From positions 1 to 33,292 of the forward strand of contig JAQTSI010000011.1 of assembly GCA_028711365.1 (NCBI GenBank): a stretch of DNA of 33,292 bases, read 5' to 3'. Source of the stretch: Methylococcaceae bacterium. GTDB lineage: Bacteria; Pseudomonadota; Gammaproteobacteria; Methylococcales; Methylococcaceae. The stretch's first letter is position 1; every line of letters starts with the position of its first letter. Below are positions 4,823-18,943 of this stretch, in pieces. A program made the translations under genes and the position numbers. The notes beneath the pieces were generated by a model. The model saw only the letters and a list, made by a program, of their open reading frames with translations. It had not been told where the DNA came from and ran no database searches.

Positions 4823-7099
4823 ATGAAAGCTATCTGGGTTATCATCGTTTGTCTATGGACATTGACCGAGTTTGCCTGGGGCGCCATACCCCACGCGGCG
4901 ATTCAGCCCGCTATGCCCGCCCCCACCGAAAGCTTGCCGGTTGCGGCTTCTCGTCTCCACCATCAGCTCGGCTACAAATTTAAGGATCTGGGCGAACTCG
5001 GCCCGATCCACCTGAATGGCGTCGATGACGACGCCACCCTATCCTTTGGCTTGCGCCGCGACGAGCTGGTCGCCAAAGCGCTTTTGAGAATCCGTTTCGC
5101 GTATTCTCCGGCGCTCATTCCGCAACTTTCCCACATCAAGATCCTGCTCAACGGCGAGGTGGCGGCGACGCTGCCGTTGTCCCATGAGCAGGCCGGCGTG
5201 GAGCAAACCCGTGAAGTCGAACTGGATCCCCGTTATTTAAGCGATTTCAATGAATTGCGATTCCAGTTGGTCGGCCATTATCTCTCCGGTCAGTCTGGCG
5301 CCGAGTGTGAGGATGCCATGCACTCCAGCCTATGGGCCAGCATCAGCAATCTGAGCCAACTGGAATTCACTGCGCAAGTGCTGGAATTGCCCAACGATCT
5401 CGCCATCCTACCCGAGCCTTTCTTCGATTTTCGCGATAACCGCAGGCTCGAACTGCCTTTTCTATTCGGCGGCAAACCATCCCGGGAAACCCTTCAGGCG
5501 GCGGGGGTCGCGGCGTCCTGGTTCGGCGCCCAGGCCGCCTACCGGGGCGCCCGTTTTCCCGTGCTGTTGAATGGACTTCCTGGACGTCACGCCATCGTGT
5601 TCGCCACCAACCAGGAACGCACGGATCTGCTCCCCCTTCCCCAGGTGGACGCGCCGACCCTCGCCCTGACATCCCATCCGCAGGACCCGAATATCAAACT
5701 CTTGCTGATTCTGGGCCGAGATGGGGCCGATCTCAAGCAAGCGGTCGAAGCGCTGGTGCTTGGCCAGGCGGTTTTATCCGGCAGCACGGCCACCGTCAAA
5801 AACATTCATCCTCCACCGCGACGCGCAGCATACGATGCCCCCAACTGGGTAAAAACAGGGCAAGCGGTCAAGCTGGGCGAGCTGGTCAGCCGTCCCGATG
5901 ATCTGCAAATCAGAAATCGTCGCCCCCATCCCATCCGAGTCAATGTGCGCGTGCCGCCCGATCTGCTGGTCTGGCAAAACAAGGGCGTGCCCCTGCAATT
6001 GAAATATCGCTACACCCCGCCGGTGGCGGACGACGATTCCACCCTCAGCATCGGTGTCAATGATTTGTTCACACGCTCATTACGGCTCAAACCGGAGCGT
6101 CAGGGGGCGACAGACAGCCTGCTGCTGCCGTTACGCAACGACGAAAGACCCATGGACAAGGGCGATATCCGGATTCCCGCCTTTCAGGTCGGCGCCGACA
6201 ACCAGCTGCAATTCCAGTTTGTTTTCGATTACCACAAACAGGGATTATGCCGTTCCTATCAGTTGGATAATGTATGGGCCGCCATAGACCCCGATTCGGT
6301 CATCGATTTCTCGTACTTTGCCCATTACGCGGAAATGCCCGATCTGAGTTTTTTCGCCCAGTCGGGTTTCCCGTTCACCCAATATGCGGATCTGGCGGAG
6401 ACCGTCGTGGTGTTGCCGGATGATCCCGTCGCCAGCGATATCGAGACCTTGCTGACCCTGCTGGGGCGCATGGGTAAATCCACCGGCCTTCCCGCCCTGC
6501 GGTTCAGGCTGCTTGACCAGGCTTCTCTCGCCGCCAATGAGGATGCCGATCTGTTATTGATAGATACCTCGCCGAAGCATGAATTGTTGAACCGTTGGCG
6601 CGAGCATCTCCCGGCCCGGATCGATAACAAGCAGCGCAGTTTTTTCACCGCATTTCGTCGGTGGGCAAACTATAAGCTGTTCGATTTTGATTCGGGCGAT
6701 CATCAGGTTGCCGCCGACCAGACGCTGCTCGAAGCCGAAGGTCCCTTGTCGGCTTTTATCGGCTTTGAATCGCCGTTGCATGACGGCCGCAGCGTGGTGG
6801 TGGTCATGGCGAGCGCGCCGGAGGTCGCCGAAACAGCCGTCGAGGCCCTGGAAAACACCGGGCTGGTCAGCTATATCCGCGGTGACGTGGCCTTCGTGCG
6901 CGGTGGCAAGGTGGAAAGCTTCCGTTTGGGTAAAAACACCTATTTCCTGGGCGAGTTGCCGGTTTGGATGTGGATATGGTTCCATTTGTCCAGGCATCCC
7001 TGGGTTCTGGCCTGCTTTGGTATATTGGCGGGGGCGCTGGTGGCTTTTCTGAGCTACTGGGCGCTGCGTCGGGTGGCGCGCAAGCGTTTAAAAACCTGA
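4823..7099 (+). CDS. bcsB: Cellulose synthase periplasmic subunit BcsB
   Basis: A 758-aa inner-membrane-anchored periplasmic subunit that pairs with BcsA and guides the growing glucan through the periplasm. A signal peptide is visible at the N-terminus ('MKAIWVIIVCLWTLTEFAWGA'). The long periplasmic part has BcsB-like beta-rich segments (for example 'FGLRRDELVAKALLRIRFAYSPA'), and the C-terminus has a membrane anchor ('HPWVLACFGILAGALVAFLSYWALRR') with a basic tail. Length is close to that of enterobacterial BcsB. It is the first gene of the nine-gene cellulose operon; 55 bp separate it from bcsZ. Unusually, bcsB precedes bcsA by seven genes. In E. coli it follows bcsA directly, so the synthase pair is translated from distant parts of the transcript. 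Confidence 0.93.
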   Translation: MKAIWVIIVCLWTLTEFAWGAIPHAAIQPAMPAPTESLPVAASRLHHQLGYKFKDLGELGPIHLNGVDDDATLSFGLRRDELVAKALLRIRFAYSPALIPQLSHIKILLNGEVAATLPLSHEQAGVEQTREVELDPRYLSDFNELRFQLVGHYLSGQSGAECEDAMHSSLWASISNLSQLEFTAQVLELPNDLAILPEPFFDFRDNRRLELPFLFGGKPSRETLQAAGVAASWFGAQAAYRGARFPVLLNGLPGRHAIVFATNQERTDLLPLPQVDAPTLALTSHPQDPNIKLLLILGRDGADLKQAVEALVLGQAVLSGSTATVKNIHPPPRRAAYDAPNWVKTGQAVKLGELVSRPDDLQIRNRRPHPIRVNVRVPPDLLVWQNKGVPLQLKYRYTPPVADDDSTLSIGVNDLFTRSLRLKPERQGATDSLLLPLRNDERPMDKGDIRIPAFQVGADNQLQFQFVFDYHKQGLCRSYQLDNVWAAIDPDSVIDFSYFAHYAEMPDLSFFAQSGFPFTQYADLAETVVVLPDDPVASDIETLLTLLGRMGKSTGLPALRFRLLDQASLAANEDADLLLIDTSPKHELLNRWREHLPARIDNKQRSFFTAFRRWANYKLFDFDSGDHQVAADQTLLEAEGPLSAFIGFESPLHDGRSVVVVMASAPEVAETAVEALENTGLVSYIRGDVAFVRGGKVESFRLGKNTYFLGELPVWMWIWFHLSRHPWVLACFGILAGALVAFLSYWALRRVARKRLKT

Positions 7100-7154
7100 G
7101 GTTCTGTTGGCCGACCACTTTTTTTAGTCGAATCTCGCATGGGGATGATGGGAT

Positions 7155-8333
7155 ATGTTGGTTTATCGGCTCAATCCTCGCTCAGGCAGACTCCTGGGGC
7201 TGGCTACGCTCGTAGTCGCCGGGCTGATCGGGTTGGCGCTCTCGCTGGCGGTGGATAGGAATTGCCCGGCCTGGCCGGAATGGAACCGGTTCAAGACCGC
7301 TTTCCTGAGCGAGGGCGGCCGCGTCATCGATCCTTCCTCGCCGCTGCGGGCCACGGTGTCGGAAGGGCAGGCTTATGCCTTGTTCTTCGCTCTGGTCGCC
7401 GACGATCGTCCAGCCTTCGATGCCATCCTGCGCTGGACCGAGGATAATCTAGCCCAAGGAGATTTGACGGCCCATCTGCCTGCCTGGCACTGGGGACGGC
7501 GCGACGAGTCTCACTGGGGGGTGTTGGACGACAATTCCGCAACCGATGCCGACCTGTGGTTGGCTTACGCTTTGGGAGAAGCCGGCCGTTTATGGAGGGA
7601 GGAGCGCTGGGTTTCGTTGTCGAGCCTGCTGGCCCATCGCATCCTGCGCACGGAAATCGCCGAACTGCCCGGCTTGGGCCCGGTCTTGTTGCCGGGGCCT
7701 TCGGGATTTCATCCGGACGCACAAAGCTGGCGGCTCAATCCCAGCTATATGCCGATGCCGCTATTGCGCCGCTTTGCCGCGCTTTATCCGCAATCGGCCT
7801 GGCCGAAGGTCGCCGACGCCTCGTTGTCTCTGTTGCTGGAAACTGCCCCGCAAGGCTACGCGCCGGACTGGGTGCTGTATCGATCGGGGCAGGGATTTAG
7901 CGTCGATAGTCAGACGCAAGGGGAGGGTGGTTACAATGCCATACGCGTTTATTTATGGGCGGGCCTCATGTCAGCGCAAGATCCTGCCCGCGGGCAATTG
8001 CTGCAAGGTTTATCCGGCATGGCCCGCCATGTCGTCGAGCATGGCGTGCCGCCCGAGTCGGTGGACACGCAAACCGGGCTTGCCCGCGGCACGGGGCCAG
8101 TGGGCTTCTCTGCGGCCCTGGTACCGTTCCTCGATGATTTGGGAGAGACGCAATCGGTCGATGAGCAACTGCAACGTCTGCAAGCCCGGCCTTTGCGGGA
8201 CAGACCGGCGGCTTATTACGATCATGCTCTCGTCCTGTTTGGCCTGGGCTGGCGGGAAGGACGCTTCCGCTTCGCCGTCGACGGCGCGCTCATTCCGGCT
8301 TGGAAGCGTTCGTGCCTCGATAAAGGGCGATGA
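7155..8333 (+). CDS. bcsZ: BcsZ-like glycoside hydrolase family 8 (periplasmic endoglucanase), base residue changed
   Basis: A 392-aa GH8 protein; BcsZ trims beta-1,4-glucan in the periplasm and is needed for normal cellulose output. The N-terminus has a membrane segment or signal anchor ('LLGLATLVVAGLIGLALSLA'). The general acid Glu lies in 'TVSEGQAYALFFAL' (E70, matching E. coli E55), and 'DNSATDADLWLAYAL' matches the next GH8 block. The E. coli catalytic base D243 sits in 'SYDAIRVY'; here the aligned motif is 'GYNAIRVYLWAG' with Asn261 (codon AAT, 7935-7937). The enzyme may therefore be weakened or use another base, as described for the GH8b subfamily. The stop overlaps bcsC by 4 bp (ATGA). 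The start is supported by a purine-rich GGGATGATGGGAT just upstream. Confidence 0.92.
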   Translation: MLVYRLNPRSGRLLGLATLVVAGLIGLALSLAVDRNCPAWPEWNRFKTAFLSEGGRVIDPSSPLRATVSEGQAYALFFALVADDRPAFDAILRWTEDNLAQGDLTAHLPAWHWGRRDESHWGVLDDNSATDADLWLAYALGEAGRLWREERWVSLSSLLAHRILRTEIAELPGLGPVLLPGPSGFHPDAQSWRLNPSYMPMPLLRRFAALYPQSAWPKVADASLSLLLETAPQGYAPDWVLYRSGQGFSVDSQTQGEGGYNAIRVYLWAGLMSAQDPARGQLLQGLSGMARHVVEHGVPPESVDTQTGLARGTGPVGFSAALVPFLDDLGETQSVDEQLQRLQARPLRDRPAAYYDHALVLFGLGWREGRFRFAVDGALIPAWKRSCLDKGR

Positions 8334-11300
8334 GCGTCATGCTGAATCCTCCCATCCGCATTTTTCTCGGCATGTTGCTGGCATTAACGACGGTTTCGTC
8401 GTCGGCGGGCGACGCGGTCGAGGAATTGCTTAGCAGCGCGCGCTTGTGGGAGGCCAACAAGCGGGAAGATCTGGCCCGCACGGCGCTGGAAAAAGCCTTG
8501 TTGATCAGCCCGCTCCATCCTCAAGCCATGCTGATGTTGGGGTTGATGGAATTGAAATCGGAGCGGATCGAACAGGTTGGCCAGCGGCTCAAGCAATTGC
8601 AAAGCGCCCATCCCGGCGATCCTGCGGCCCGTCAACTGGAAGATGCTTATCGCATCGCCACCACGGATCGCAAGGCCATGGCCAGGGCTCGCCTGCTGGC
8701 CCGCACCGGCAAGAACGAAGAAGCGATGGCCGCAATGCGCGATTTATACCCCAAGGGACCGCCCGGCGGCGAGTTGGGCACCGAGTACTACCGGCTATTG
8801 GCGAGCACCGAAAAAAACCGCAAGGAGGCCATGGCCGGGCTGGAGCGCTTGATCAGGGAGTCGGCCGACGACCTACGCCCCCGCCTGGCCCTGGCCGATC
8901 TGCTCATCGACCAATCGGCAAGCCGGTTGCAGGGCATCCGCTTGGCCGCTTCCTTGGCTCGGCAGGATGAATTGAACCACCAAGAGGTGTTGGGCGTCTG
9001 GCGCAGAGGTTTGAACAAGCTGGATCTCGACCCGGCGAACGAGAGCTTATACCGCGACTATCTGGCCCAGGATCCGCTGGATCAACTCATTCAACAACGG
9101 CTGAAGGAGGTAGCCGATCCCTCGTTGAAAGCGCGCAGAGCCGCCGCTGGCAAAGGGCGCAAGTCCGCCGGACCCGACAGTTGGGATTTGATCAAAGCCG
9201 CCAAAAAAGCCCAAGAAAGAGGCCGTTTGCAAGAAGCCGAGAATCTGGCATTGAAAGCGCTGAAGCTTCGGCCCGGCGAGTTGGAAGCCATGATCACCCT
9301 CGCCGGCATCCATGTCGACAAGCGCGATCAGGCCAAAGCCGAAGCGCTGTATCGGCAGGTTTTAAGGCGCGATCATGCCAATGACAGGGCCCTGCGAGGC
9401 ATGATCAAACTGCTGTCGGAAAGCGGCAGGCGTAGTGCCGCCATCGATTTCCTCGAGGCTTTCGCCGGCGCCAATCCCAGCAAAGCGGGGGCTGTCGCCT
9501 CGATGAGGGCCGGCTTGCTGCGCGCCGAAGCGGACGATTTTCTGAACTCGGGCCAAATGGCCAAGGCCGTGGAAACACTGGAAAAGGGTTTGCGGTTGGC
9601 GCCAGTTGACCCCTGGTTGCGCTTCGATCTGGCCAGGCTTTATGTTCGTCAAGGTTTGGTTCAGCCGGCTCGAAAGCTCATGGAGCAGGATCCGGCTGCG
9701 GTAGACCCGCAGGCAATCTATGCCCAGGCCCTGTTCCTGGCGGGGATCGATGATGAAGCGGCGGCTTTGGTGGCGTTGGAGCGGATTGCGCCAGCCCGGC
9801 GCAATGAATCCATGACGGGCCTATATCGCCGAACCCAAGTGCGCTTGCGCGCGAAACAGGCCCGCGATGCCCAGATGCAGGGGGATCAGGCCGTGGTGTC
9901 GCGCCTGTTGCAGGAGGCGGAAAAAATCGCCGAATCGGAGCCTGAACTGTTGTGGTCAGTGGCGGGCGCTAGGGTGGAAAGGGGGGAAGTGGAACGTGGC
10001 TTGGCGCTGGGAAGACGTCTGTTGGCCGAGGGCTCGCCCGGTACGGAATCCCGTTTGCACTATGCCCGACTGTTGAATGCGGCCGAACGTGACGATGAGT
10101 TGGCCGACATGCTCGAACAGACCGAACCGGATCAACTACCCGCCCATCGGCAAGCGGACTGGCTGTCCCTGCGGGCATCCCTGGCTATCCGCCGCGCCAG
10201 GGTCAAGCAAGGTTTGGGCGAATATGGACAGGCACTGGAACTGTTGAACTCGGCCTTACGCCTGCAGCCGAATGATGGGCGACTGCTGGCGGCGCAAGCC
10301 GAGTTGTACGATGTGATGGGCAGGCGCAAGGAGGCGAGAGCCATCTTGCGACGAGTCATCGAATCGAATCCTGCCGATTATGACGCCCGTTTGAGCAAGG
10401 CTAAATTGGACCGGCGGATGGGCAATGCCGGGGAAGCCTTGCGCGAGTTGAATGTTTTGCGCAGCCTGGCACCCGAGGATGACGTGGATACCCGGTTGGG
10501 CATCGCCAGGCAATTGGTGGCGCTGGAACGGTACGACGAAGCCAGGCAAGTGACCGAGATGCTGAATCAAAGGCGACCGAATGATGCGAAAGTGTTGCTG
10601 CAATCGGGCCGGGTCGAAAAAGAGGCGAGCGATTATGATCAGGCTTTGGTCTTGTTTCGCCAGGCCCGGAAACTGGAAATTCCCGATGCCCAGCGTTCGG
10701 GCGCGACCGCGGGCCAGACCGGCGGGCTATCGCCGGCAACCGAGGAGATCCAGTCCATCGAACGACGACGTTACGGGTTCTTATCGGCCGGCTTCGATCA
10801 GCGTCAACTGAGCGGAACCCCGGGTTTATCCGAAATCACCGACGAGGAGTATCCCCTGTTGTTTCGTTATCCCTTAGGCTATCGAGGCCACTGGTTCATC
10901 CAGATGGACTATTCCACCGTATCGGCGGGACAATTGCCTCTGTACCGTTTCGACGATGCGGGATTGTTCGGAAAAATCCAGGCCCTGGGTCAGAACCATT
11001 TGAAAGGGGTTTCCGACCAGTCGGCGAGTGGAGTGGATTTTGGCATCGGTTATCAGAACGATGATTGGCGTTTCGACATCGGCTCCAGTCCCCAAGGCTT
11101 CCCGGTCAGCTATCTGGTCGGCGGCATCAAGAAAAAAGGAAGCATCGGCGATGCTTACTATTCCCTGGATCTCGCTCGCCGCCCGGTTCCCAATAGCCTG
11201 ATTTCCTATGCCGGTGCGCGCGATCCGGTCACCGGGGATGTGTGGGGGGGCGTGCGCCGCAACGGTCTGGATTTCTATTCCGGCTACGATGATGGCCGCC

Positions 11301-11914
11301 TGGGTTTATTCCTCCAGGGCGGAGCGCATTACCTCGATGGCGAGCATGTCAAATCGAATCGGGACCTGATGTTGCGCGGCGGCGCCGATTGGGCCTTCAT
11401 CGATACCCATGACATGCGTCTGACGGCGGGTTTTGCCCTGATGTACTGGAATTTTGCGAATAATCAAAGGTTTTATACCTTTGGCCATGGCGGTTACTGG
11501 AGTCCGCAGGACTACCAATCCATCGCCTTCCCTTTGCAATGGAGCGGCCGTTTTGGTGCTTTGTCTTATTTGCTGAGGGGATCTTATTCCTTTTCGGTCT
11601 CCCAAGAGAAGGATGCGGATTTCTATCCCAACGATAGCGGTTTGCAGGCGATGGCGGAAAAAAATCCCCTGCCATCGGGGTATTCCAGACCCGTATACGG
11701 CGGCAGCGACGGCAGCGGCACCGGCTACTCAATCATGGGAATCCTGGAATATCAGGTCGATCCCCATCTGTTCCTAGGCGCTCGGTATGAACTGGCGCGC
11801 TCGCCCTACTACACGCCCAATTACATGACTTTCTACTTTCGTTATGCCTTCGAACCGCGTACCGAAGAGATTCCTTTCCCACCCAAACCCATCAGACCTT
11901 ACTACACCTATTGA
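8330..11914 (+). CDS. bcsC: Cellulose export outer-membrane protein BcsC (TPR plus beta-barrel)
   Basis: A 1194-aa exporter: periplasmic TPR superhelix followed by an outer-membrane barrel that lets the glucan out. A signal peptide is seen ('IFLGMLLALTTVSSSAGDA'). Helical TPR-like repeats run to about residue 790 (for example 'AENLALKALKLRPGELEAMI' and 'ALELLNSALRLQPNDGRLLA'). The C-terminal third is aromatic-rich with alternating strands and ends 'FYFRYAFEP...IRPYYTY', as expected for the BCSC_C barrel. Length is near that of E. coli BcsC (1157 aa). The start overlaps the bcsZ stop (ATGA), so it is translationally coupled. Confidence 0.95.
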   Translation: MSVMLNPPIRIFLGMLLALTTVSSSAGDAVEELLSSARLWEANKREDLARTALEKALLISPLHPQAMLMLGLMELKSERIEQVGQRLKQLQSAHPGDPAARQLEDAYRIATTDRKAMARARLLARTGKNEEAMAAMRDLYPKGPPGGELGTEYYRLLASTEKNRKEAMAGLERLIRESADDLRPRLALADLLIDQSASRLQGIRLAASLARQDELNHQEVLGVWRRGLNKLDLDPANESLYRDYLAQDPLDQLIQQRLKEVADPSLKARRAAAGKGRKSAGPDSWDLIKAAKKAQERGRLQEAENLALKALKLRPGELEAMITLAGIHVDKRDQAKAEALYRQVLRRDHANDRALRGMIKLLSESGRRSAAIDFLEAFAGANPSKAGAVASMRAGLLRAEADDFLNSGQMAKAVETLEKGLRLAPVDPWLRFDLARLYVRQGLVQPARKLMEQDPAAVDPQAIYAQALFLAGIDDEAAALVALERIAPARRNESMTGLYRRTQVRLRAKQARDAQMQGDQAVVSRLLQEAEKIAESEPELLWSVAGARVERGEVERGLALGRRLLAEGSPGTESRLHYARLLNAAERDDELADMLEQTEPDQLPAHRQADWLSLRASLAIRRARVKQGLGEYGQALELLNSALRLQPNDGRLLAAQAELYDVMGRRKEARAILRRVIESNPADYDARLSKAKLDRRMGNAGEALRELNVLRSLAPEDDVDTRLGIARQLVALERYDEARQVTEMLNQRRPNDAKVLLQSGRVEKEASDYDQALVLFRQARKLEIPDAQRSGATAGQTGGLSPATEEIQSIERRRYGFLSAGFDQRQLSGTPGLSEITDEEYPLLFRYPLGYRGHWFIQMDYSTVSAGQLPLYRFDDAGLFGKIQALGQNHLKGVSDQSASGVDFGIGYQNDDWRFDIGSSPQGFPVSYLVGGIKKKGSIGDAYYSLDLARRPVPNSLISYAGARDPVTGDVWGGVRRNGLDFYSGYDDGRLGLFLQGGAHYLDGEHVKSNRDLMLRGGADWAFIDTHDMRLTAGFALMYWNFANNQRFYTFGHGGYWSPQDYQSIAFPLQWSGRFGALSYLLRGSYSFSVSQEKDADFYPNDSGLQAMAEKNPLPSGYSRPVYGGSDGSGTGYSIMGILEYQVDPHLFLGARYELARSPYYTPNYMTFYFRYAFEPRTEEIPFPPKPIRPYYTY

Positions 11915-11920
11915 GTTCTC

Positions 11921-12124
11921 ATGAAACCAAGAACCCTGCCCGATGATATCGCTGCCCTGCTCGCCACGCTGAAGCAGGATTTCGAGTTCCGCGAAATTTC
12001 CCGGGATGAAGAAGCGCAGGCGATCATCGCCCGCTGGCCTTTGTTCCGGCGGCTGGCACGGCGTCAGGCTAGGGTAGAGTCCGCCAACGGCATCGAGAAA
12101 TCCGGGGAGGAAAGTCCAAGATGA
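11921..12124 (+). CDS. BcsR-like small cellulose regulator
   Basis: A 67-aa protein six bases after bcsC. The core 'TLPDDIAALLATLKQDFEFREISRDEEA...IARWPLFRRLA' follows the pattern of E. coli BcsR (62 aa), which has 'DTLPD...DIVALKQAF...DISQREQ...KRWPLLAEFA'. BcsR partners BcsQ in the E. coli inner-membrane Bcs complex, and bcsQ is present three genes downstream. The C-terminal tail 'ARRQARVESANGIEKSGEESPR' is charged and probably disordered. I infer function from pattern and context; the short length limits certainty, and the unrelated BcsP-type small proteins are an alternative. In E. coli bcsR sits directly before bcsQ, but here bcsE and bcsF separate them. Confidence 0.7.
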   Translation: MKPRTLPDDIAALLATLKQDFEFREISRDEEAQAIIARWPLFRRLARRQARVESANGIEKSGEESPR

Positions 12125-12163
12125 TCGCCTGTGATCCGATGAACCGAGGGAACGTTTATCCAG

Positions 12164-13879
12164 ATGATTTTTTCCCGGCGTGAAAAGCTGTCGGCTCTGT
12201 CGATAGGGGTACGAGATCTTCCCGTCGCAGTGGGCTTGTTGCGGCCGGGTAATTTGTATGCCGTGGGGGTCAGGAATGCGCAGGCGCGCCGATTATTGAT
12301 CGCCAATACCGCCAGCAGGGCTTTGCAACAGGGGGCGAAGGTGGCGATCATCTCGGCGCAACCGGCAGACCAAGTGGAATTCCTCTTGGCGCTGGATGCG
12401 GAAGTCGATCGGGCAGTCGAAGCCGGCAGCTTGTGCTTCTTCAGTCAACTGGAGGATTATGCCGTCAAGCTGGAGCGCCATGGCGCCGACCGTTTCCTGA
12501 CCGAGTTGGAGGATAGTGGTTTGCAAGCCGGCACTCTCCTGCTACTGGATGGCGCCAACCGGCTTTTTTCTGGCCACGATAGGGTCAAAGCCTCAACCCA
12601 AGCGCGTCTTTATTGCGATTGGTTCAGGGGCAGGCGAATGATCGGGATCTTTTGCTTTGCTGATTTTTCCTTGCCGGAATCGGCCGCGAACCGATTGAAA
12701 AATCTGGGTGATATTTTCTCGGGAAAAAGCGAACTGAAATCGGACCAGGGACGGTTCATCTGGGACGTCACTTACTGGGAAACCGAGAACGGTGTGGTGA
12801 GGGGAAGGGAATTCGGCGTTTATTGTGATCCGTCCGGAAAACATCTGGTCGCGAATGGCCTGGAGATCGACACCATGGCGCAAAGTCTGATCAAAGCCCC
12901 GGACGAGAGACGGGTTATCCTCACCGCCCATGCGCTGGACATGTCCGTTCATATACCCGAGGGATGGAAGGTGGTGGCGGGATATGCAGAAATATTGGCC
13001 GCTGCATGCGATACCATAGCCGCCACGATCGTACTCCATTTCGAACGGCATGAGGAGTTCCAGGAATTGGCCTATGTCGTCCATAGTCTCAGAATGGTGG
13101 CGGGGCGGGGGATAAAACTCATCGTTTGGGAAAAGGGCGAGCGGTTGCGCTATAGCCAGGCATCGTTGCTGACGGGATTGGGCGTCAACCTGGTGCTCTA
13201 CAAGGAACAGGGCATGTCCAAACTCCTGCTGGCGATCGAAGATCTGCAGGGGGTTTGTTTCATACATTGCCTGGAGCAGGATTTCGAATCCGCCGTGAAG
13301 GCAGCGACGCCGATGGTGAAGGGGGGGTATCTTCCGCCCAAAGCATTCGGCAATGCGGTATCGTTGGCCTTGAACCAGCGCACGTCGATGCAGCATGTCC
13401 TGGTATGCCTGCGCCTGTCGCCGGAAATCGCCCATATCGATGCCTTGCTGGCCTGTCGGATCGAAAGACCGGGCGATTTCCTGAGCGCGGACGAAACTCA
13501 GGTCTATCTGTTTTTGTTTGGCTGTCCGGAATCGGACATCGATACCATCCTGGATAGGATCATGGCCTTGCCGGTGGAAGAATTGTTCCTCGAACAGGCG
13601 CGCTATACTTCCCGCGAACTGATCGCGAAAATCGTCGATGACTTTGTCGCAAGGGCGGAGCACCAAGCTTTTACCGATTTTTCCCTGCAACTGCGCAAGC
13701 CTGAATCAAAGGCCGCGCCATCGACCGAAAAACTTGCGCTCGAAAATCCAACCGAAGATCAGACCCGCCACAGGGAATCTGCGAACGGAACAATGGCGGC
13801 CCCAAGGTGCGCGCCGGGAGGAAAGCGCAGCATCGCTCCCTGCTGCTTGTTGTTGCGAAAGGCGATATTCAGGCCATGA
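12164..13879 (+). CDS. bcsE: Cellulose biosynthesis protein BcsE, c-di-GMP-binding GIL domain
   Basis: A 571-aa cytosolic regulator. BcsE binds c-di-GMP through its GIL domain, and with BcsF, BcsR and BcsQ it boosts BcsA activity. The N-terminal half looks like a degenerate RecA/receiver-type fold ('LYAVGVRNAQARRLLIANTA'). The GIL region is clear: 'HSLRMVAGRGIKLIVWEKGERLRY' (308-330), 'LLTGLGVNLVLYKE' (335-348) and the I-site-like RxGD motif 'RPGD' at 435-438. The last ~70 residues after the conserved part are low complexity, and the extreme end ('RCAPGGKRSIAPCCLLLRKAIFRP') looks poorly conserved. The stop overlaps bcsF by 4 bp. GAGGG lies 13 nt before the ATG, a long spacing. Confidence 0.9.
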   Translation: MIFSRREKLSALSIGVRDLPVAVGLLRPGNLYAVGVRNAQARRLLIANTASRALQQGAKVAIISAQPADQVEFLLALDAEVDRAVEAGSLCFFSQLEDYAVKLERHGADRFLTELEDSGLQAGTLLLLDGANRLFSGHDRVKASTQARLYCDWFRGRRMIGIFCFADFSLPESAANRLKNLGDIFSGKSELKSDQGRFIWDVTYWETENGVVRGREFGVYCDPSGKHLVANGLEIDTMAQSLIKAPDERRVILTAHALDMSVHIPEGWKVVAGYAEILAAACDTIAATIVLHFERHEEFQELAYVVHSLRMVAGRGIKLIVWEKGERLRYSQASLLTGLGVNLVLYKEQGMSKLLLAIEDLQGVCFIHCLEQDFESAVKAATPMVKGGYLPPKAFGNAVSLALNQRTSMQHVLVCLRLSPEIAHIDALLACRIERPGDFLSADETQVYLFLFGCPESDIDTILDRIMALPVEELFLEQARYTSRELIAKIVDDFVARAEHQAFTDFSLQLRKPESKAAPSTEKLALENPTEDQTRHRESANGTMAAPRCAPGGKRSIAPCCLLLRKAIFRP

Positions 13880-14064
13880 GAAGTGAGAGTATCCATGCCT
13901 TGCTGGGGCAATTGCTGAATTATTCCATGGCGGGACTGCTGGCTTTTTTTGTCGTTCTGACAGTCTTTCGATTCGTCACCTCGATACGTCTACCCGGGGG
14001 AATGCGAAAACTGTTCAGAAAGCGCAGGGAGCCTATTTTTATTCGGGTATATCGGCCGAAATAA
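13876..14064 (+). CDS. bcsF: BcsF-like single-pass membrane protein
   Basis: A 62-aa protein with one transmembrane helix ('YSMAGLLAFFVVLTVFRFVTSI') followed by a basic tail ('MRKLFRKRREPIFIRVYRPK'). E. coli BcsF (63 aa) has the same layout and recruits BcsE to the membrane. I chose the inner ATG at 13876 rather than the track start at 13807. It overlaps the bcsE stop exactly (ATGA), gives the family length, and removes an implausible N-terminus. The position directly after bcsE matches the E. coli bcsE-bcsF order. The call rests on size, topology and context, because sequence identity in this family is low. Confidence 0.8.
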   Translation: MRSESIHALLGQLLNYSMAGLLAFFVVLTVFRFVTSIRLPGGMRKLFRKRREPIFIRVYRPK

Positions 14065-14098
14065 TGGGTCATTTCCATGGTTTTCAAGGTTCGATAGC

Positions 14099-14875
14099 AT
14101 GTATATCGTTGCCCTCGTTTCTACCCAGGGTGGTGTGGGGAAAACCACCATCACGGCCAATCTCGCGGCCGCCATCGGCAAGCGCGGTCATGCGGTGCTG
14201 GCGTTGGACTGGGACCCTGCCAATCGGTTAGGGCTGCATCTCGGCCTGGATCAAGCGCCTCTTCAGGGGCTCGCACAGCAGTCGGTCAGCGGAGGACATT
14301 GGAACGAAGCGGCTTACCACAATTCGGACAATGTGGATTTTTTGCCTTTCGGACAACTCTGCGAGGAGAGCCGGCTGGCATTCGAGCGTTTGCTGTGCGG
14401 GGACAAACTATGGCTGGCCCGGCGGCTGGAGGAACTCGAATACCCCCGGAACGGCGTGGTGCTGGTGGACACGATGCGGGCTCCCTCCCCCTATCTTACC
14501 CAGGCCTTGCAAGTGGCGGATCGGGTGCTGTCCGTAATGACGCCCGCCCCCACTTTTCAGCTCGACATCGAGGCCATGGAGAAATTCCTCATCGAGTTGG
14601 GCGAGGGCCATTCCCTACTCCTACGCCAGAATTATTTGCTGAACCAGGTCGATACGACGAGGCGGCTGACGCGAGAGATTATCACGGTTTTGCACGCCCA
14701 ACTGGAGCAGCGTTTGCTTCGTTACATGATCCACCGGGATGAAGCGGTGCCGGAAGCCATCGCTTGCAACGCCAGTGTGGCCGACCATGCGCCCTTGGGG
14801 CAAGCCGACCATGATTTTCAAGGACTGGCCTCGTGGTTGCTGGCCCAGGCCGACGGCGAAGGCCCCCTGCCATGA
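14099..14875 (+). CDS. bcsQ: BcsQ, MinD/ParA-like ATPase of the cellulose complex
   Basis: A 258-aa SIMIBI-class ATPase that assembles with BcsR and supports BcsA. The deviant Walker A 'STQGGVGKTTITANLAAAIG' is at residues 8-27, the switch-type 'LALDWDPANRLGLHLGLD' follows, and later 'DNVDFLPFGQL' and 'RYMIHRDEAVPEAIA' match E. coli BcsQ ('LDLLPFGQL', 'MLIHRDEAMAE'). The P-loop here has the normal Lys, whereas the E. coli K-12 protein reads GGVGTTT. The stop overlaps the bcsA start (ATGA), so BcsQ and BcsA are likely made in coupled fashion, mirroring bcsQ-bcsA adjacency in E. coli. Confidence 0.93.
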   Translation: MYIVALVSTQGGVGKTTITANLAAAIGKRGHAVLALDWDPANRLGLHLGLDQAPLQGLAQQSVSGGHWNEAAYHNSDNVDFLPFGQLCEESRLAFERLLCGDKLWLARRLEELEYPRNGVVLVDTMRAPSPYLTQALQVADRVLSVMTPAPTFQLDIEAMEKFLIELGEGHSLLLRQNYLLNQVDTTRRLTREIITVLHAQLEQRLLRYMIHRDEAVPEAIACNASVADHAPLGQADHDFQGLASWLLAQADGEGPLP

Positions 14876-17352
14876 AGCCGGGCGGCTTGATCGGGTTCCT
14901 GGCCGGACGACTTGGGGTGGCAGACCCCGCCCGAATCGGGTCATGGCTGCTGCGTGTCTTCGTATTGCCGCCGCGAATGAAACAAGCCGGTCGGCAAGGA
15001 GAGAGCCTGAGCGGGAATGTGGCGATCAACCGGATGATCGCCGTCTGGGCCGGAGCGCTTGGGGTGAACGATATGCTCGATCCAGGGGCCTGGATATTGC
15101 GCATTTTCATCCTGCCGCCTGCCCGGGAAGCCGGTTTGACCGGCTGGCTGCAAGCCGGCTTCGTCAGAGCGCGCCGATGGGTGAGCGAGCGCTTTTCGCC
15201 GCGGCGTTATGCCCGGCTGGTTTCCAGGCTGGAAACCGCTGGCATCGAATGGATGGATACCGGCGGCGTGGCTTTGCGCATCTTCCTGGGCTTGTTGGCC
15301 GGCTCATTCCTGCTGCTCGTCATCACCACGCCGTTGAATGGCGGCGAACAAGCGCGGTTTTTTCTAGTCACCTGGATGCTCGCCTTGCTGGTGCGGCGGC
15401 TGCCGGGAGACTTGCCGGGCGTGATCCTGATCATGTTGTCCTTCCTGGCGGCGTTGCGTTATGGCTGGTGGCGGATCACCAGCAGCATACCGCAGGGCTT
15501 CGGCATGGATTGGCTGTTCGGCATGGTCCTGCTGGCTGCCGAAATCTATACCTGGTTGATTTTGGTGCTGGGTTATGTGCAAACCATCATGCCGTTGCGC
15601 CGGCAGCCTGCGCCATTGCCCACCGATCCCGGTGACTGGCCAACGGTGGACGTTTTCATACCCACCTACAACGAACCCTTGAAGGTAGTGAAGACCACCG
15701 TGTACGGCGCGCAGAGCATCGATTGGCCGAAGGACAAACTCAACGTCTATCTCCTCGACGACGGCAGGCGCGAGGCGTTTCGCCAGTTCGCCGAACAGGC
15801 CGGTGTGGGTTACATCATCCGGAAGGACAACGCCCATGCCAAGGCCGGTAATCTGAATCATGCTTTGCGCTTGACGAAGGGCGAGTATATCGCCGTGTTC
15901 GATTGCGATCATATCCCTACCCGGGCGTTTCTTCAGTTATCCATGGGGTGGTTTTTGCGCGATCCTCATTGCGCGATGGCGCAGACACCTCACCATTTCT
16001 ATTCGGCAGACGCCTTCGAACGCAATTTGTCCACCCTTTACCGGGTTCCCAGTGAAAATACCCTGTTCTATCGTTTGGTTCAGGATGGCAACGATCTTTG
16101 GAATGCGGCGTTTTTTTGCGGTTCCTGCGCCATACTCAAGCCCACGCCATTGGAAGAAATCGGTGGCATTGCCGTCGAGACGGTTACGGAAGATGCACAT
16201 ACCGCGCTCAAGCTGCATCGGCGCGGTTATAACAGCGTCTACCTCAACATTCCTCTTGCTGCGGGGCTTGCCACCGAGAGCCTTGCCAGCCATATCGGTC
16301 AGTGGATTCGCTGGGCCCGGGGGATGGTGCAGATTTTTCGCATCGACAATCCCTTGCTGGGCAGGGGATTGTCCTTCTTCCAGCGTCTTTGCTATTGCAA
16401 TGCGATGCTGTATTTCTTTCACGGCATCCCCCGGCTCATTTTTCTGCTGGCTCCGCTTGCCTATCTTGGCTTCGAATTGCACATCATCCACGCCGAGGCC
16501 AAGGTGCTGGTGTTCTATGTTCTGCCCTACCTCGTCCATGCCATCATGGCCAATGCGCGCATCCAGGGACAATACCGCCATTCTTTCTGGGCCGAGGTCT
16601 ATGAATCGGTGTTGGCCTGGTATATCGCCATACCTACCACGCTGGCCCTGTTCAAACCGAAGCTCGGGAAATTCAATGTGACGTCCAAAGGCGGTTTGAC
16701 CGAGCTATCTTTCTTCGATTGGGCCATCTCCAAACCCTATCTCCTGCTGTTGGGATGCAACCTCTTGGGGTTTCTGTTAGGAATCGGCCGTTTGCTATGG
16801 TGGAATACCCGTGAGATAAACGTCGTGCTGCTGAATCTCGCTTGGGTTTTGTTCAATCTCACCCTTTTGGGCGCGGCTTTGGGGGTGGCGACGGAGGCCC
16901 GCCAGGTCCGCCTGTCCCATCGCGTGGCGATGAGGCTGCCGGTCAGCCTGTATCTTCCCGACGGCAGGGTCTGGGCTTGTTGGACCTTGGACTATTCCAG
17001 CGGAGGCCTCAGCCTGGATTTTCCGAAGGCGCAAGTGCTGGAAGTGGGGCAAAAGGTGGCGGTGTCGCTGTCGCGAGGCGATCAGGAGTTCACCTTTCCC
17101 GGCCAGATAGTCCTGGCTCAGGGCAAACGCATCGGTCTGCGCTTTGCGGATTTGTCGCCGCAGGAAGAGGCCTGGCTGACGCAGTGCACCTTTGCCCGCG
17201 CCGACGCCTGGTGCAATTGGGTTGAGAACCAGCCGCCGGGCCGAGAATTGGCGGGATTTTGGGAAATCGTCGATTCTGCCCGTTACGGCTATGGACAATT
17301 GCTGCGCCGTTTCGTCCATACCCTGCGTGCCCCGCGCGGGCATGACGGGTAG
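14872..17352 (+). CDS. bcsA: Cellulose synthase catalytic subunit BcsA (UDP-glucose-forming beta-1,4-glucan, PilZ)
   Basis: An 826-aa GT2 processive synthase in the inner membrane, polymerising UDP-glucose to beta-1,4-glucan when c-di-GMP is bound. I moved the start from 14833 to 14872, where the ATG overlaps the bcsQ stop (ATGA). Catalytic motifs are all present: DDG (296-298), DCD (344-346), FFCGS (415-419), TED (439-441) and QxxRW as 'QWIRW' (477-481). The C-terminal PilZ domain keeps RxxxR (680-684, in 'RQVRLSHR') and DxSxxG 'DYSSGG' (707-712), so c-di-GMP control should be intact. Several TM helices flank the GT domain. The long N-terminus resembles the enterobacterial type and contains a repeated 'LGV.D....GxWxLRxFxLPP' motif (about 14-35 and 63-84). 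Confidence 0.97.
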   Translation: MKPGGLIGFLAGRLGVADPARIGSWLLRVFVLPPRMKQAGRQGESLSGNVAINRMIAVWAGALGVNDMLDPGAWILRIFILPPAREAGLTGWLQAGFVRARRWVSERFSPRRYARLVSRLETAGIEWMDTGGVALRIFLGLLAGSFLLLVITTPLNGGEQARFFLVTWMLALLVRRLPGDLPGVILIMLSFLAALRYGWWRITSSIPQGFGMDWLFGMVLLAAEIYTWLILVLGYVQTIMPLRRQPAPLPTDPGDWPTVDVFIPTYNEPLKVVKTTVYGAQSIDWPKDKLNVYLLDDGRREAFRQFAEQAGVGYIIRKDNAHAKAGNLNHALRLTKGEYIAVFDCDHIPTRAFLQLSMGWFLRDPHCAMAQTPHHFYSADAFERNLSTLYRVPSENTLFYRLVQDGNDLWNAAFFCGSCAILKPTPLEEIGGIAVETVTEDAHTALKLHRRGYNSVYLNIPLAAGLATESLASHIGQWIRWARGMVQIFRIDNPLLGRGLSFFQRLCYCNAMLYFFHGIPRLIFLLAPLAYLGFELHIIHAEAKVLVFYVLPYLVHAIMANARIQGQYRHSFWAEVYESVLAWYIAIPTTLALFKPKLGKFNVTSKGGLTELSFFDWAISKPYLLLLGCNLLGFLLGIGRLLWWNTREINVVLLNLAWVLFNLTLLGAALGVATEARQVRLSHRVAMRLPVSLYLPDGRVWACWTLDYSSGGLSLDFPKAQVLEVGQKVAVSLSRGDQEFTFPGQIVLAQGKRIGLRFADLSPQEEAWLTQCTFARADAWCNWVENQPPGRELAGFWEIVDSARYGYGQLLRRFVHTLRAPRGHDG

Positions 17353-17374
17353 TTTGGCCGCCGGGAAACACCCC

Positions 17375-18943
17375 ATGGGTATCTGGAATTACTACTTCAT
17401 CGCCAAGTTGTATTGGTTTTTCGGCGGCCAGATTGGCTTGCACCGCTGGGAAAACCTGTGCTTCGCCGCTTTGCTCCTCATTCCGATCGAACCGAGGTGG
17501 GCTAGGCTATTGCGCCAACTCATCGCCATACCGGTCGGCGTGGTGCTGCTTTATCACGATTCCTGGCTGCCCCCGGTTTCGCGCCTGATCGAGGCGGCGC
17601 CCAACCTGGCGAGTTTCAGCGGCGCCTATCGGTTGGAGTTAATGGAACGATTCTTCAATGGACAGATCGTCGCCGAGTTATTGGCCTTGTTCATGGTCGC
17701 CGGCTTGTTGAGTTTGAAACTTCGGATCAGCAGTTTCGTCCTGTTGACATTGCTCGCCGCGCCTCAATTGAGCGCTTTGGCCTCGTTGAACTCCGCCCCT
17801 CAACAATCCTGCGCGAACCTCTGTCCAGGCCAGGCAAGGGTCGAGAAACCGCAGACGCAACAGGCTCAGGACGCCGACTTGGACACGGCCCTGGAAAATT
17901 TCCACGCCGAGGAGTCCAGGCGTCAGGTGATTTTCCACAAACCCAAAGCTGCCCCTGCGTTCGATATCATCATCCTGCAAATCTGTTCGCTGGCCTGGGA
18001 TGATATCGACTTCGTGCATGGAGATGCCTCGTTCCTCAAACGCTTCGACCTGCTATTCACCCGTTTCAATTCGGGATCGAGCTATAGCGGCCCGGCCGTC
18101 ATACGCTTGTTGCGCGGGAATTGCGGTCAGCAACAACACGACAAACTTTATCAAGATACCCAGCCTGCTTGCTATCTCTTCAACAAATTGGCTGAATTCG
18201 GTTTCACTCCCAACCTGCTGCTGAATCATACCGGCGATTTCGGCGGGTTTCTCCATGACATACAGGATCATGGCGGTTTGAACATCGCTCCGATCCATAA
18301 TCTGGGCGCGGTTACCTATTTGAATAGCTTCGACGGTACCCCGGTTTTCGATGATTACGACGTTCTGTCCCAGTGGTGGACAAGAAGACAATCCCAATCC
18401 ACCTCGCCCGTCGCTTTGTTCTACAATAGCAGCAGCCTCCATGACGGCAATCGTGTGCCGGGGGCGAAGAAGCTTCCCAACGTGGAATTCTACCGAATTC
18501 GTCTGAAAAGACTGTTCGGCGATGTCGGCCGGTTCATGACCGAACTGGAGGATTCGGGGCGCCAGGCGGTGCTGGTGTTCATTCCGGAACATGGCGCGGC
18601 ATTACGCGGAGACAAGATTCAAATTTCCGGCCTGCGCGAGATTCCTACAGCGCAAATTACCCTGATACCGGTCGGCGTCAAGTTCATCGGCATACCTAAA
18701 GATGCTATTTCATCCCAGATAGTGGTTGAAAAGCCCAGCAGTTATCTGGCGCTTTCAGACTTGCTGGCCAGGCTCATCGAAGCGAATCCTTACGCCGGAA
18801 ACTGGGGCGATTTCCTGCCGCAGCTCGAGCGATTGTCCATCACCGAGTATGAAGCGGAAAATGAGAAAACCGTCATGATGAGCAAAGGAGAGCGATATTT
18901 CATGCGCACGCCCGATTCGACCTGGATGGAATATCCCAAGTAA
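17375..18943 (+). CDS. bcsG: Cellulose phosphoethanolamine transferase BcsG
   Basis: About 522 aa: four or five N-terminal TM helices ('WNYYFIAKLYWFFGG' matches E. coli 'WNFYFLVKF') and a periplasmic alkaline-phosphatase-like domain that moves phosphoethanolamine from lipid to cellulose. Residues matching the E. coli zinc and nucleophile set are visible: Cys in 'ICSLAW' (204), the nucleophile Ser in 'SSYSGPA' (238), His in 'SLHDGNR' and Glu-His in 'FIPEHG'. The track ORF opens at 17192 inside bcsA. I prefer 17375, which has GGGAA seven bases upstream; 17342 is a second option that would overlap bcsA by 11 bp. It is the last gene of the cellulose operon. The segment around residues 135-185 is a variable, Gln-rich linker. 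Confidence 0.92.
   Translation: MGIWNYYFIAKLYWFFGGQIGLHRWENLCFAALLLIPIEPRWARLLRQLIAIPVGVVLLYHDSWLPPVSRLIEAAPNLASFSGAYRLELMERFFNGQIVAELLALFMVAGLLSLKLRISSFVLLTLLAAPQLSALASLNSAPQQSCANLCPGQARVEKPQTQQAQDADLDTALENFHAEESRRQVIFHKPKAAPAFDIIILQICSLAWDDIDFVHGDASFLKRFDLLFTRFNSGSSYSGPAVIRLLRGNCGQQQHDKLYQDTQPACYLFNKLAEFGFTPNLLLNHTGDFGGFLHDIQDHGGLNIAPIHNLGAVTYLNSFDGTPVFDDYDVLSQWWTRRQSQSTSPVALFYNSSSLHDGNRVPGAKKLPNVEFYRIRLKRLFGDVGRFMTELEDSGRQAVLVFIPEHGAALRGDKIQISGLREIPTAQITLIPVGVKFIGIPKDAISSQIVVEKPSSYLALSDLLARLIEANPYAGNWGDFLPQLERLSITEYEAENEKTVMMSKGERYFMRTPDSTWMEYPK

What the first reader, a model, noticed from the sequence alone, without database searches (positions are those of the whole stretch)
7935..7937. 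BcsZ has Asn in place of the catalytic base Asp
E. coli BcsZ uses E55 as acid and D243 as base, the latter in 'SYDAIRVY'. In this otherwise well-conserved BcsZ the acid Glu70 is kept, but the aligned motif is 'GYNAIRVYLW', with codon AAT (GAT would give Asp). Either the glucanase has lost activity and acts structurally, or it uses a different base as in the GH8b subfamily, or the organism needs slow trimming of a modified cellulose. The gene is otherwise intact, so loss by decay is unlikely.
Basis: partly seen in the sequence, partly recalled or inferred. Interest (0 to 1): 0.7.

Follow-up and report, generated by a model that had tools for sequence, protein, structure and literature searches.

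The report
Cellulase with amide at its base
The cellulose-trimming enzyme BcsZ in this genome has asparagine where the E. coli enzyme has its catalytic aspartate, but the same swap has arisen many times and is the normal state in large groups of bacteria, including the rhizobial family of a cellulase known to be active, so this is most likely a widespread working variant and not a broken enzyme.

Summary
In detail: codon 261 of bcsZ (7935-7937) is AAT (Asn), aligned with the E. coli base Asp243; the acid Glu70 is kept. It is not peculiar to this genome. Of 278 BcsZ/GH8 homologues collected, 166 have Asn, 103 Asp, 7 Glu, and all 278 keep the acid. In an even phylum draw 14 of 49 have Asn. Asn is reconstructed as ancestral for the window's clade (P about 0.97-1.0). 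Asp and Asn interchange repeatedly (at least 25 changes), including an apparent return to Asp in the window's 60%-identical sister. Asn-type genes show ordinary purifying selection and sit in complete bcs operons. Rhizobial CelC genes are Asn-type, including one from R. leguminosarum, whose CelC2 is a purified active endoglucanase. So is PDB 5cd2. Decay, read error and a structural-only role are unlikely. How the Asn form works is open: Asp-to-Asn in another GH8 enzyme cuts activity at least 1000-fold. A new clue is position 238 (PDW motif): Glu occurs only with Asn261 (16 clades), Asn only with Asp261 (8 clades). This fits an Asn base backed by carboxylate 238, as proposed for GH95/GH139, but no activity or distance was measured.

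The parts
7155..8333 (+). bcsZ, periplasmic GH8 endo-beta-1,4-glucanase, 392 aa, Asn-type
   Evidence: PF01270; NF008305 equivalog; predicted model pLDDT 91, 46-50% identity and rmsd 1.1-1.6 A to solved BcsZ structures
7935..7937 (+). codon 261, AAT = Asn, at the position of E. coli Asp243 / CelA Asp278 (general base)
7362..7364 (+). codon 70, Glu, proton-donor acid (E. coli Glu55); invariant in 278 of 278 homologues
7545..7547 (+). codon 131, Asp, equivalent of AfmE1 Asp95 / CelA Asp152 (subsite -1 Asp; its counterpart is the base in GH48)
7746..7748 (+). codon 198, Tyr, E. coli Tyr182; by alignment the candidate for the Tyr that positions the nucleophilic water in other GH8
7866..7868 (+). 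codon 238, Asp of the PDW motif (E. coli Asp220, CelA Asp259); covaries with residue 261
7905..7907 (+). codon 251, Asp, 10 residues before Asn261, the spacing of the GH8b base Glu309
7923..7925 (+). codon 257, Glu, 4 residues before Asn261; acid here is commoner in Asn-types
4823..7099 (+). bcsB
   Evidence: PF03170
8330..11914 (+). bcsC
   Evidence: PF05420 and TPR
12164..13879 (+). bcsE
   Evidence: PF10995, TIGR03369
14099..14875 (+). bcsQ
   Evidence: PF06564
14833..17352 (+). bcsA (longest ORF; its start overlaps bcsQ)
   Evidence: glycosyltransferase 2 and PilZ
17378..18943 (+). bcsG, pEtN transferase (start inferred inside ORF 17192-18943)
   Evidence: PF11658, TIGR03368

Best explanation
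This is a functional BcsZ of a widespread Asn-type, not a decayed enzyme. Asn261 was inherited: the window's clade has carried Asn at the base position since its common ancestor, and Asp and Asn interchange by a single transition elsewhere in the family. Shown here by sequence: identity of the codon, spread, ancestry, switching, constancy of the acid Glu70, ordinary purifying selection, and the exclusion pattern between residues 238 and 261. Inferred: the enzyme still trims periplasmic cellulose during export. Most likely mechanism, inferred only: Glu70 protonates the leaving group as usual, Asn261 holds the nucleophilic water, and the water's proton is taken up by Asn261 itself as an activated (imidic) amide or passed on to a neighbouring carboxylate. 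The best candidate for that carboxylate is Asp238 of the PDW motif, with Asp131 as second candidate. The confidence given is for the functional, inherited Asn-type; the specific Asp238-backed Asn mechanism alone I put at about 0.3.
For: Asn in 74 of 80 nearest named homologues, 14 of 49 in an even phylum draw, 40 of 54 in one alphaproteobacterial order. Acid Glu70 278/278; Arg264 invariant in both types; Tyr198 166/166 in Asn-types. At least 19 state changes on 158 sequences, 9 forced by well-supported branches; 25 on 267 sequences with both coupled columns left out of the tree. Ancestral P(Asn) 0.97-1.00 with returns to Asp in L002, L058, L077. dN/dS of Asn-type pairs 0.05-0.19 against 0.06-0.16 for Asp-type. 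Asn-types in complete bcs operons. CelC of R. tropici, R. etli, S. fredii, S. medicae, S. meliloti, N. galegae and R. leguminosarum are Asn-type; R. leguminosarum CelC2 is a purified, active endoglucanase (PMC6761101). PDB 5cd2 reads SYNAIRVYLWAG. Residue 238: (Asn261,Asp) 139, (Asp261,Asp) 93, (Asn261,Glu) 25, (Asp261,Asn) 10, none with two amides, none Glu with Asp261; dependent model better, LR 17.3, p 1.7e-4 uncorrected. Precedent for Asn as base activated by Asp in inverting hydrolases: GH95/GH139 (PMC12282258); imidic Asn base in GH45 (PMC5829257).
Against: In TtGH8, Asp281Asn at this position leaves about 0.1% activity by the text, 0.01% by the table values (PMC6173055). E. coli BcsZ Asp243Ala is inactive on CMC plates although Asp220 (= 238) is present (PMC11379886). 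No activity of any Asn-type BcsZ was measured here, and the CelC2 sequence of the assayed strain ANU843 was not read. The 238-261 association sits on a background of clade effects: in a scan of 311 columns several variable columns do as well, and the independent-pair tests for it have too few informative pairs. No coordinates were available to measure the distance from 238 to 261.
Confidence: 0.72

Rival explanations
1. Asn-type BcsZ is catalytically dead or nearly so and acts as a cellulose-binding or structural part of the export complex.
For: Asp-to-Asn at this position lowers TtGH8 activity at least 1000-fold. A Salmonella BcsZ acid mutant still affects some biofilm phenotypes, suggesting a role beyond catalysis (PMC5070118).
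Against: Acid Glu70 is invariant in 166 of 166 Asn-types. Asp reappears inside Asn clades. In E. coli cellulase activity is needed for export and an unrelated cellulase replaces BcsZ. The rhizobial Asn-type CelC family contains a known active cellulase.
Confidence: 0.13
2. The base has moved to an acid in the loop before Asn261 (Asp251 at -10 or Glu257 at -4), as in GH8b chitosanases where Glu309 stands 10 residues before Asn319.
For: GH8b spacing verified on 1v5c. In E. coli-like BcsZ of the first set all 83 Asn-types have acid at -10 or -4, against 23 of 35 Asp-types. Sister pair: window E257/N261 versus L002 I/D.
Against: In the enlarged set several Asn-types have no acid in that loop (L222, L223, L224, L236, L293, L306, L307, L313). 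Independent pairs: -4 acid goes with Asn in 3.5 and against in 0.6 of 14, median p 0.375; -10 acid shows no link. L223 (Asn) and L308 (Asp) have nearly the same loop.
Confidence: 0.15
3. The invariant subsite -1 Asp (Asp131, CelA Asp152) takes over as base, as its equivalent does in the sister family GH48.
For: Asp131 in 164 of 166 Asn-types. The GH48 base is the structural equivalent of CelA Asp152 (PMC13363691).
Against: It is equally invariant in Asp-types, so sequence cannot tell; in GH8 it is described as positioning the sugar in subsite -1.
Confidence: 0.2
4. Asn261 is deamidated to Asp after synthesis, giving a normal GH8 enzyme.
For: Would explain normal function without other changes; no tool result supports it.
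Against: Asn-Ala is a slow deamidation context (general knowledge). Not tested.
Confidence: 0.03

Closest known systems
BcsZ of E. coli / Enterobacter (PDB 3qxf, 7f81)
   Same: fold (rmsd 1.3-1.4 A), acid Glu, PDW Asp, operon partners bcsA, B, C, E, G, Q
   Different: Asp at the base position; E. coli has Lys233 where the window has Asp251
V. fischeri ES114 endo-1,4-D-glucanase (PDB 5cd2)
   Same: BcsZ with Asn at the base position; structure released 2015
   Different: Val, not Glu, at -4; 46% identical in the structural match
Rhizobial CelC / CelC2
   Same: GH8 cellulase in a cellulose-synthesis operon, Asn at the base position; one member biochemically active
   Different: other main branch of the tree (SHSEGQGYG motif); several members have Glu at position 238
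GH8b chitosanase of Bacillus sp. K17 (1v5c)
   Same: Asn at the CelA Asp278 position, acid residue 10 before it
   Different: about 16% identity; Glu, not Asp, at -10; a loop acid is not general in Asn-type BcsZ
GH95 / GH139 fucosidases and GH45 subfamily C
   Same: inverting hydrolases proposed to use an Asn base, in GH95/GH139 activated by an Asp
   Different: other families and substrates; the proposal there rests on structure and mutants, here only on covariation

Membership tests
BcsZ (NF008305 / PF01270) | family profile score above curated cut-off | tested here: met
   521.5 bits against 299; Pfam 252.5 against 24
BcsZ (NF008305 / PF01270) | encoded with bcsA, bcsB, bcsC | tested here: met
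   B-Z-C-E-Q-A-G on one strand
BcsZ (NF008305 / PF01270) | catalytic acid Glu | tested here: met
   Glu70
GH8a (Adachi scheme) | Asp base at the CelA Asp278 position | tested here: not met
   Asn261
GH8b (Adachi scheme) | Asn at the CelA Asp278 position (as in K17 chitosanase) | tested here: met
   N261 corresponds to K17 N319
GH8b (Adachi scheme) | Glu base 10 residues upstream | tested here: not met
   Asp251 in the window; no acid in the loop of several Asn-types
Pseudoenzyme | loss of constraint on the remaining catalytic residue | tested here: not met
   Glu70 invariant in 166 Asn-types; dN/dS 0.05-0.19
Asn-base hydrolase (GH95/GH139-like mechanism) | carboxylate next to the Asn that activates it | tested here: inconclusive
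   238 is Asp/Glu whenever 261 is Asn, one odd outlier apart; distance not measurable here
Active endoglucanase | hydrolysis of CMC or cello-oligosaccharides | not testable with these tools
   needs an assay

The most novel reading that the evidence does not exclude
In BcsZ/CelC cellulases the general base is a two-residue site: positions 238 (PDW) and 261 share one required carboxylate, so that evolution flips repeatedly between a classical Asp base and an Asn base activated by Asp/Glu238, making the textbook base of BcsZ optional across a whole family.
Probability: 0.3. Interest if true: 0.68.

Novelty: new variant of a known kind. Interest (0 to 1): 0.47.

Why it matters
The base assigned in E. 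coli BcsZ is treated as part of the essential machinery of bacterial cellulose export, yet a large share of natural BcsZ/CelC enzymes lack it and show no sign of decay. Either an amide can serve as base in GH8, as claimed for GH45, GH95 and GH139, or another carboxylate takes over, or BcsZ can do its job at very low rates. A natural family with at least 25 Asp/Asn switches, one Asn-type crystal structure and one Asn-type lineage with known activity makes this directly testable.

Tried and rejected
Read error or decay. Link of Asn to operon type: both states occur in the same architectures, e.g. L058 (Asp) among Cupriavidus (Asn). A single compensating acid column: none in the first set. Column 257 (-4) looked best in independent pairs but weakened with 120 new sequences. 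GH8b-type loop base: not general. Paper searches for a characterised Asn-type enzyme from Burkholderia, Cupriavidus or Dyella found none in the titles and abstracts listed. Robledo 2008 and Nakamura 2015, and a guessed DOI for Mazur and Zimmer 2011, were not found in the library. No tool gave coordinates, so no distances were measured. A search for methane/ammonia monooxygenase to help name the organism was uninformative.

Full report
OBSERVATION. The ORF 7155-8333 (+) encodes a 392-residue BcsZ that passes the NCBIfam BcsZ equivalog and Pfam GH8 cut-offs. Codon 261 (7935-7937) is AAT, Asn, in GYNAIRVYLW, aligned with Asp in E. coli and Enterobacter BcsZ. By numbering it is E. coli 243 and CelA 278. 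The acid Glu70 (E. coli Glu55) is present. The gene lies in a complete operon bcsB-Z-C-E-Q-A-G. A model built from 28 homologues has mean pLDDT 91 and matches solved BcsZ structures at 1.1-1.6 A.

HOW COMMON. 74 of the 80 nearest named homologues (Nitrotoga, Cupriavidus, Dyella, Paraburkholderia, Chromobacterium, Acidovorax and others) have Asn. This sample is drawn by similarity to the window. In draws made evenly over a class and a phylum the counts are 3 Asn/13 Asp and 14 Asn/32 Asp/3 Glu; in three orders 18/14, 40/14 and 13/26. The pooled, deduplicated set of 278 has Asn 166, Asp 103, Glu 7, Ser 1, one gap, and the acid in all 278. Most solved BcsZ-type structures are Asp-type, but PDB 5cd2 (V. 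fischeri ES114) reads SYNAIRVYLWAG and is Asn-type.

HISTORY. With column 261 blanked, a tree of 158 sequences needs 19 state changes, at least 9 forced by well-supported branches. With 267 sequences and both columns 261 and 238 left out it needs 25. A two-state model puts Asn at 0.97-1.00 at the nearest ancestors of the window. The window's sister L002 (same family, 60% identical), L058 and L077 are then returns to Asp. Codons are AAC/AAT and GAC/GAT, one transition apart. These are quick trees, so single branches are uncertain, but the multiplicity of change is robust.

IS THE ASN FORM ALIVE? Glu70, Asn195, Tyr198 and Arg264 are invariant in the Asn-types. dN/dS between close Asn-type pairs is 0.05-0.19, like Asp-type pairs (0.06-0.16). 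Most Asn-types sit in bcs operons, and the switch does not follow operon type. One genome, G728, carries both an Asn-type and an Asp-type gene. Rhizobial celC genes of R. tropici CIAT 899, R. etli 8C-3, S. fredii NGR234, S. medicae, S. meliloti GR4 and N. galegae are Asn-type. So is the R. leguminosarum copy found, although that record is frameshifted. R. leguminosarum CelC2 is described as a purified, biochemically characterised endoglucanase (PMC6761101). Its own sequence was not read here. Against this, Asp281Asn of the GH8 xylanase TtGH8 keeps about 0.1% activity by the text, or 0.01% by the table (PMC6173055). E. coli Asp243Ala is inactive and fails in export (PMC11379886). So if Asn-types work well, their site differs from those enzymes in more than this residue.

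WHERE IS THE BASE? (a) GH8b-like relocation. In K17 chitosanase residue 309 is Glu and the CelA-278 position is Asn319, 10 residues on. The window has Asp251 at -10 and Glu257 at -4, and among E. coli-like BcsZ of the first set all 83 Asn-types have acid at one of them against 23 of 35 Asp-types. I then collected 120 new sequences. Acid at -4 remained commoner with Asn (21 of 73 against 1 of 43), but several Asn-types have no acid in the loop and the independent-pair test was not significant. (b) Residue 238, Asp of the PDW motif (E. coli 220, CelA 259). The four combinations seen are Asn261/Asp238 139, Asp261/Asp238 93, Asn261/Glu238 25, Asp261/Asn238 10. Two amides never occur apart from one outlier with an aberrant motif (L319), and Glu238 never occurs with Asp261. 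Glu238 forms 16 pure clades, all Asn261; Asn238 forms 8, all Asp261. A model in which change at 238 depends on 261 is better by LR 17.3, 2 df, p 1.7e-4. This was found after looking at conserved acid columns, and a scan of 311 columns shows that clade effects make several variable columns equally significant. It is a strong lead, not proof. (c) Asp131 (CelA Asp152), whose GH48 equivalent is the base, cannot be judged from sequence because it hardly varies.

MECHANISM PREFERRED. Glu70 as acid; Asn261 holding the water and acting as activated amide or relay; Asp/Glu238 as the carboxylate behind it. The same logic, an Asn base activated by an Asp in an inverting enzyme with an (alpha/alpha)6 domain, is proposed for GH95 and GH139 (PMC12282258), and an imidic Asn base for GH45 (PMC5829257). 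Residues 238 and 261 flank the same predicted beta-hairpin (240-250) and loop, so contact is plausible, but no distance was measured.

COMPARISON AND NOVELTY. The protein is a BcsZ by every family test. It fails the defining feature of GH8a (Asp at the CelA-278 position) and of GH8b (Glu at -10). That GH8 members differ in base location is known (PMC5407803, PMC6173055). In the passages I read I found no mention that a large part of BcsZ/CelC lacks the assigned base.

Noticed in passing
G000 contig C321:3333-4394, locus L194:1324-2592: The genome carries a second, unlinked GH8 gene resembling GH8b glucanases/chitosanases (best solved relative 5xd0), also with Asn at the CelA-278 position (YYYNAGR) and Glu 10 residues before it.
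   Followed up: partly
window 4823-18943: BcsZ is patchy in this family: six genomes of the same genus lack a match, and one of 30 other family members has a close one, suggesting transfer or repeated loss.
   Followed up: no
L119 and L138 (one genome, G728): One genome from the group of G734 has two bcs loci, one with Asn-type and one with Asp-type BcsZ: a natural pair for comparison.
   Followed up: no
BcsZ column 84 (window codon 84, 7404-7406): Recurrent departures from the conserved Asp84 to Ser, Glu or Asn were counted only in Asn261 lineages; unexplained.
   Followed up: no
L190:2307-3219 (R. leguminosarum plasmid pSK06): celC in this deposited record is split by an apparent frameshift and has no listed gene.
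   Followed up: no
window 14833-14875: The longest bcsA ORF (GTG start) overlaps the end of bcsQ by 43 bases; the true start may lie further down.
   Followed up: no
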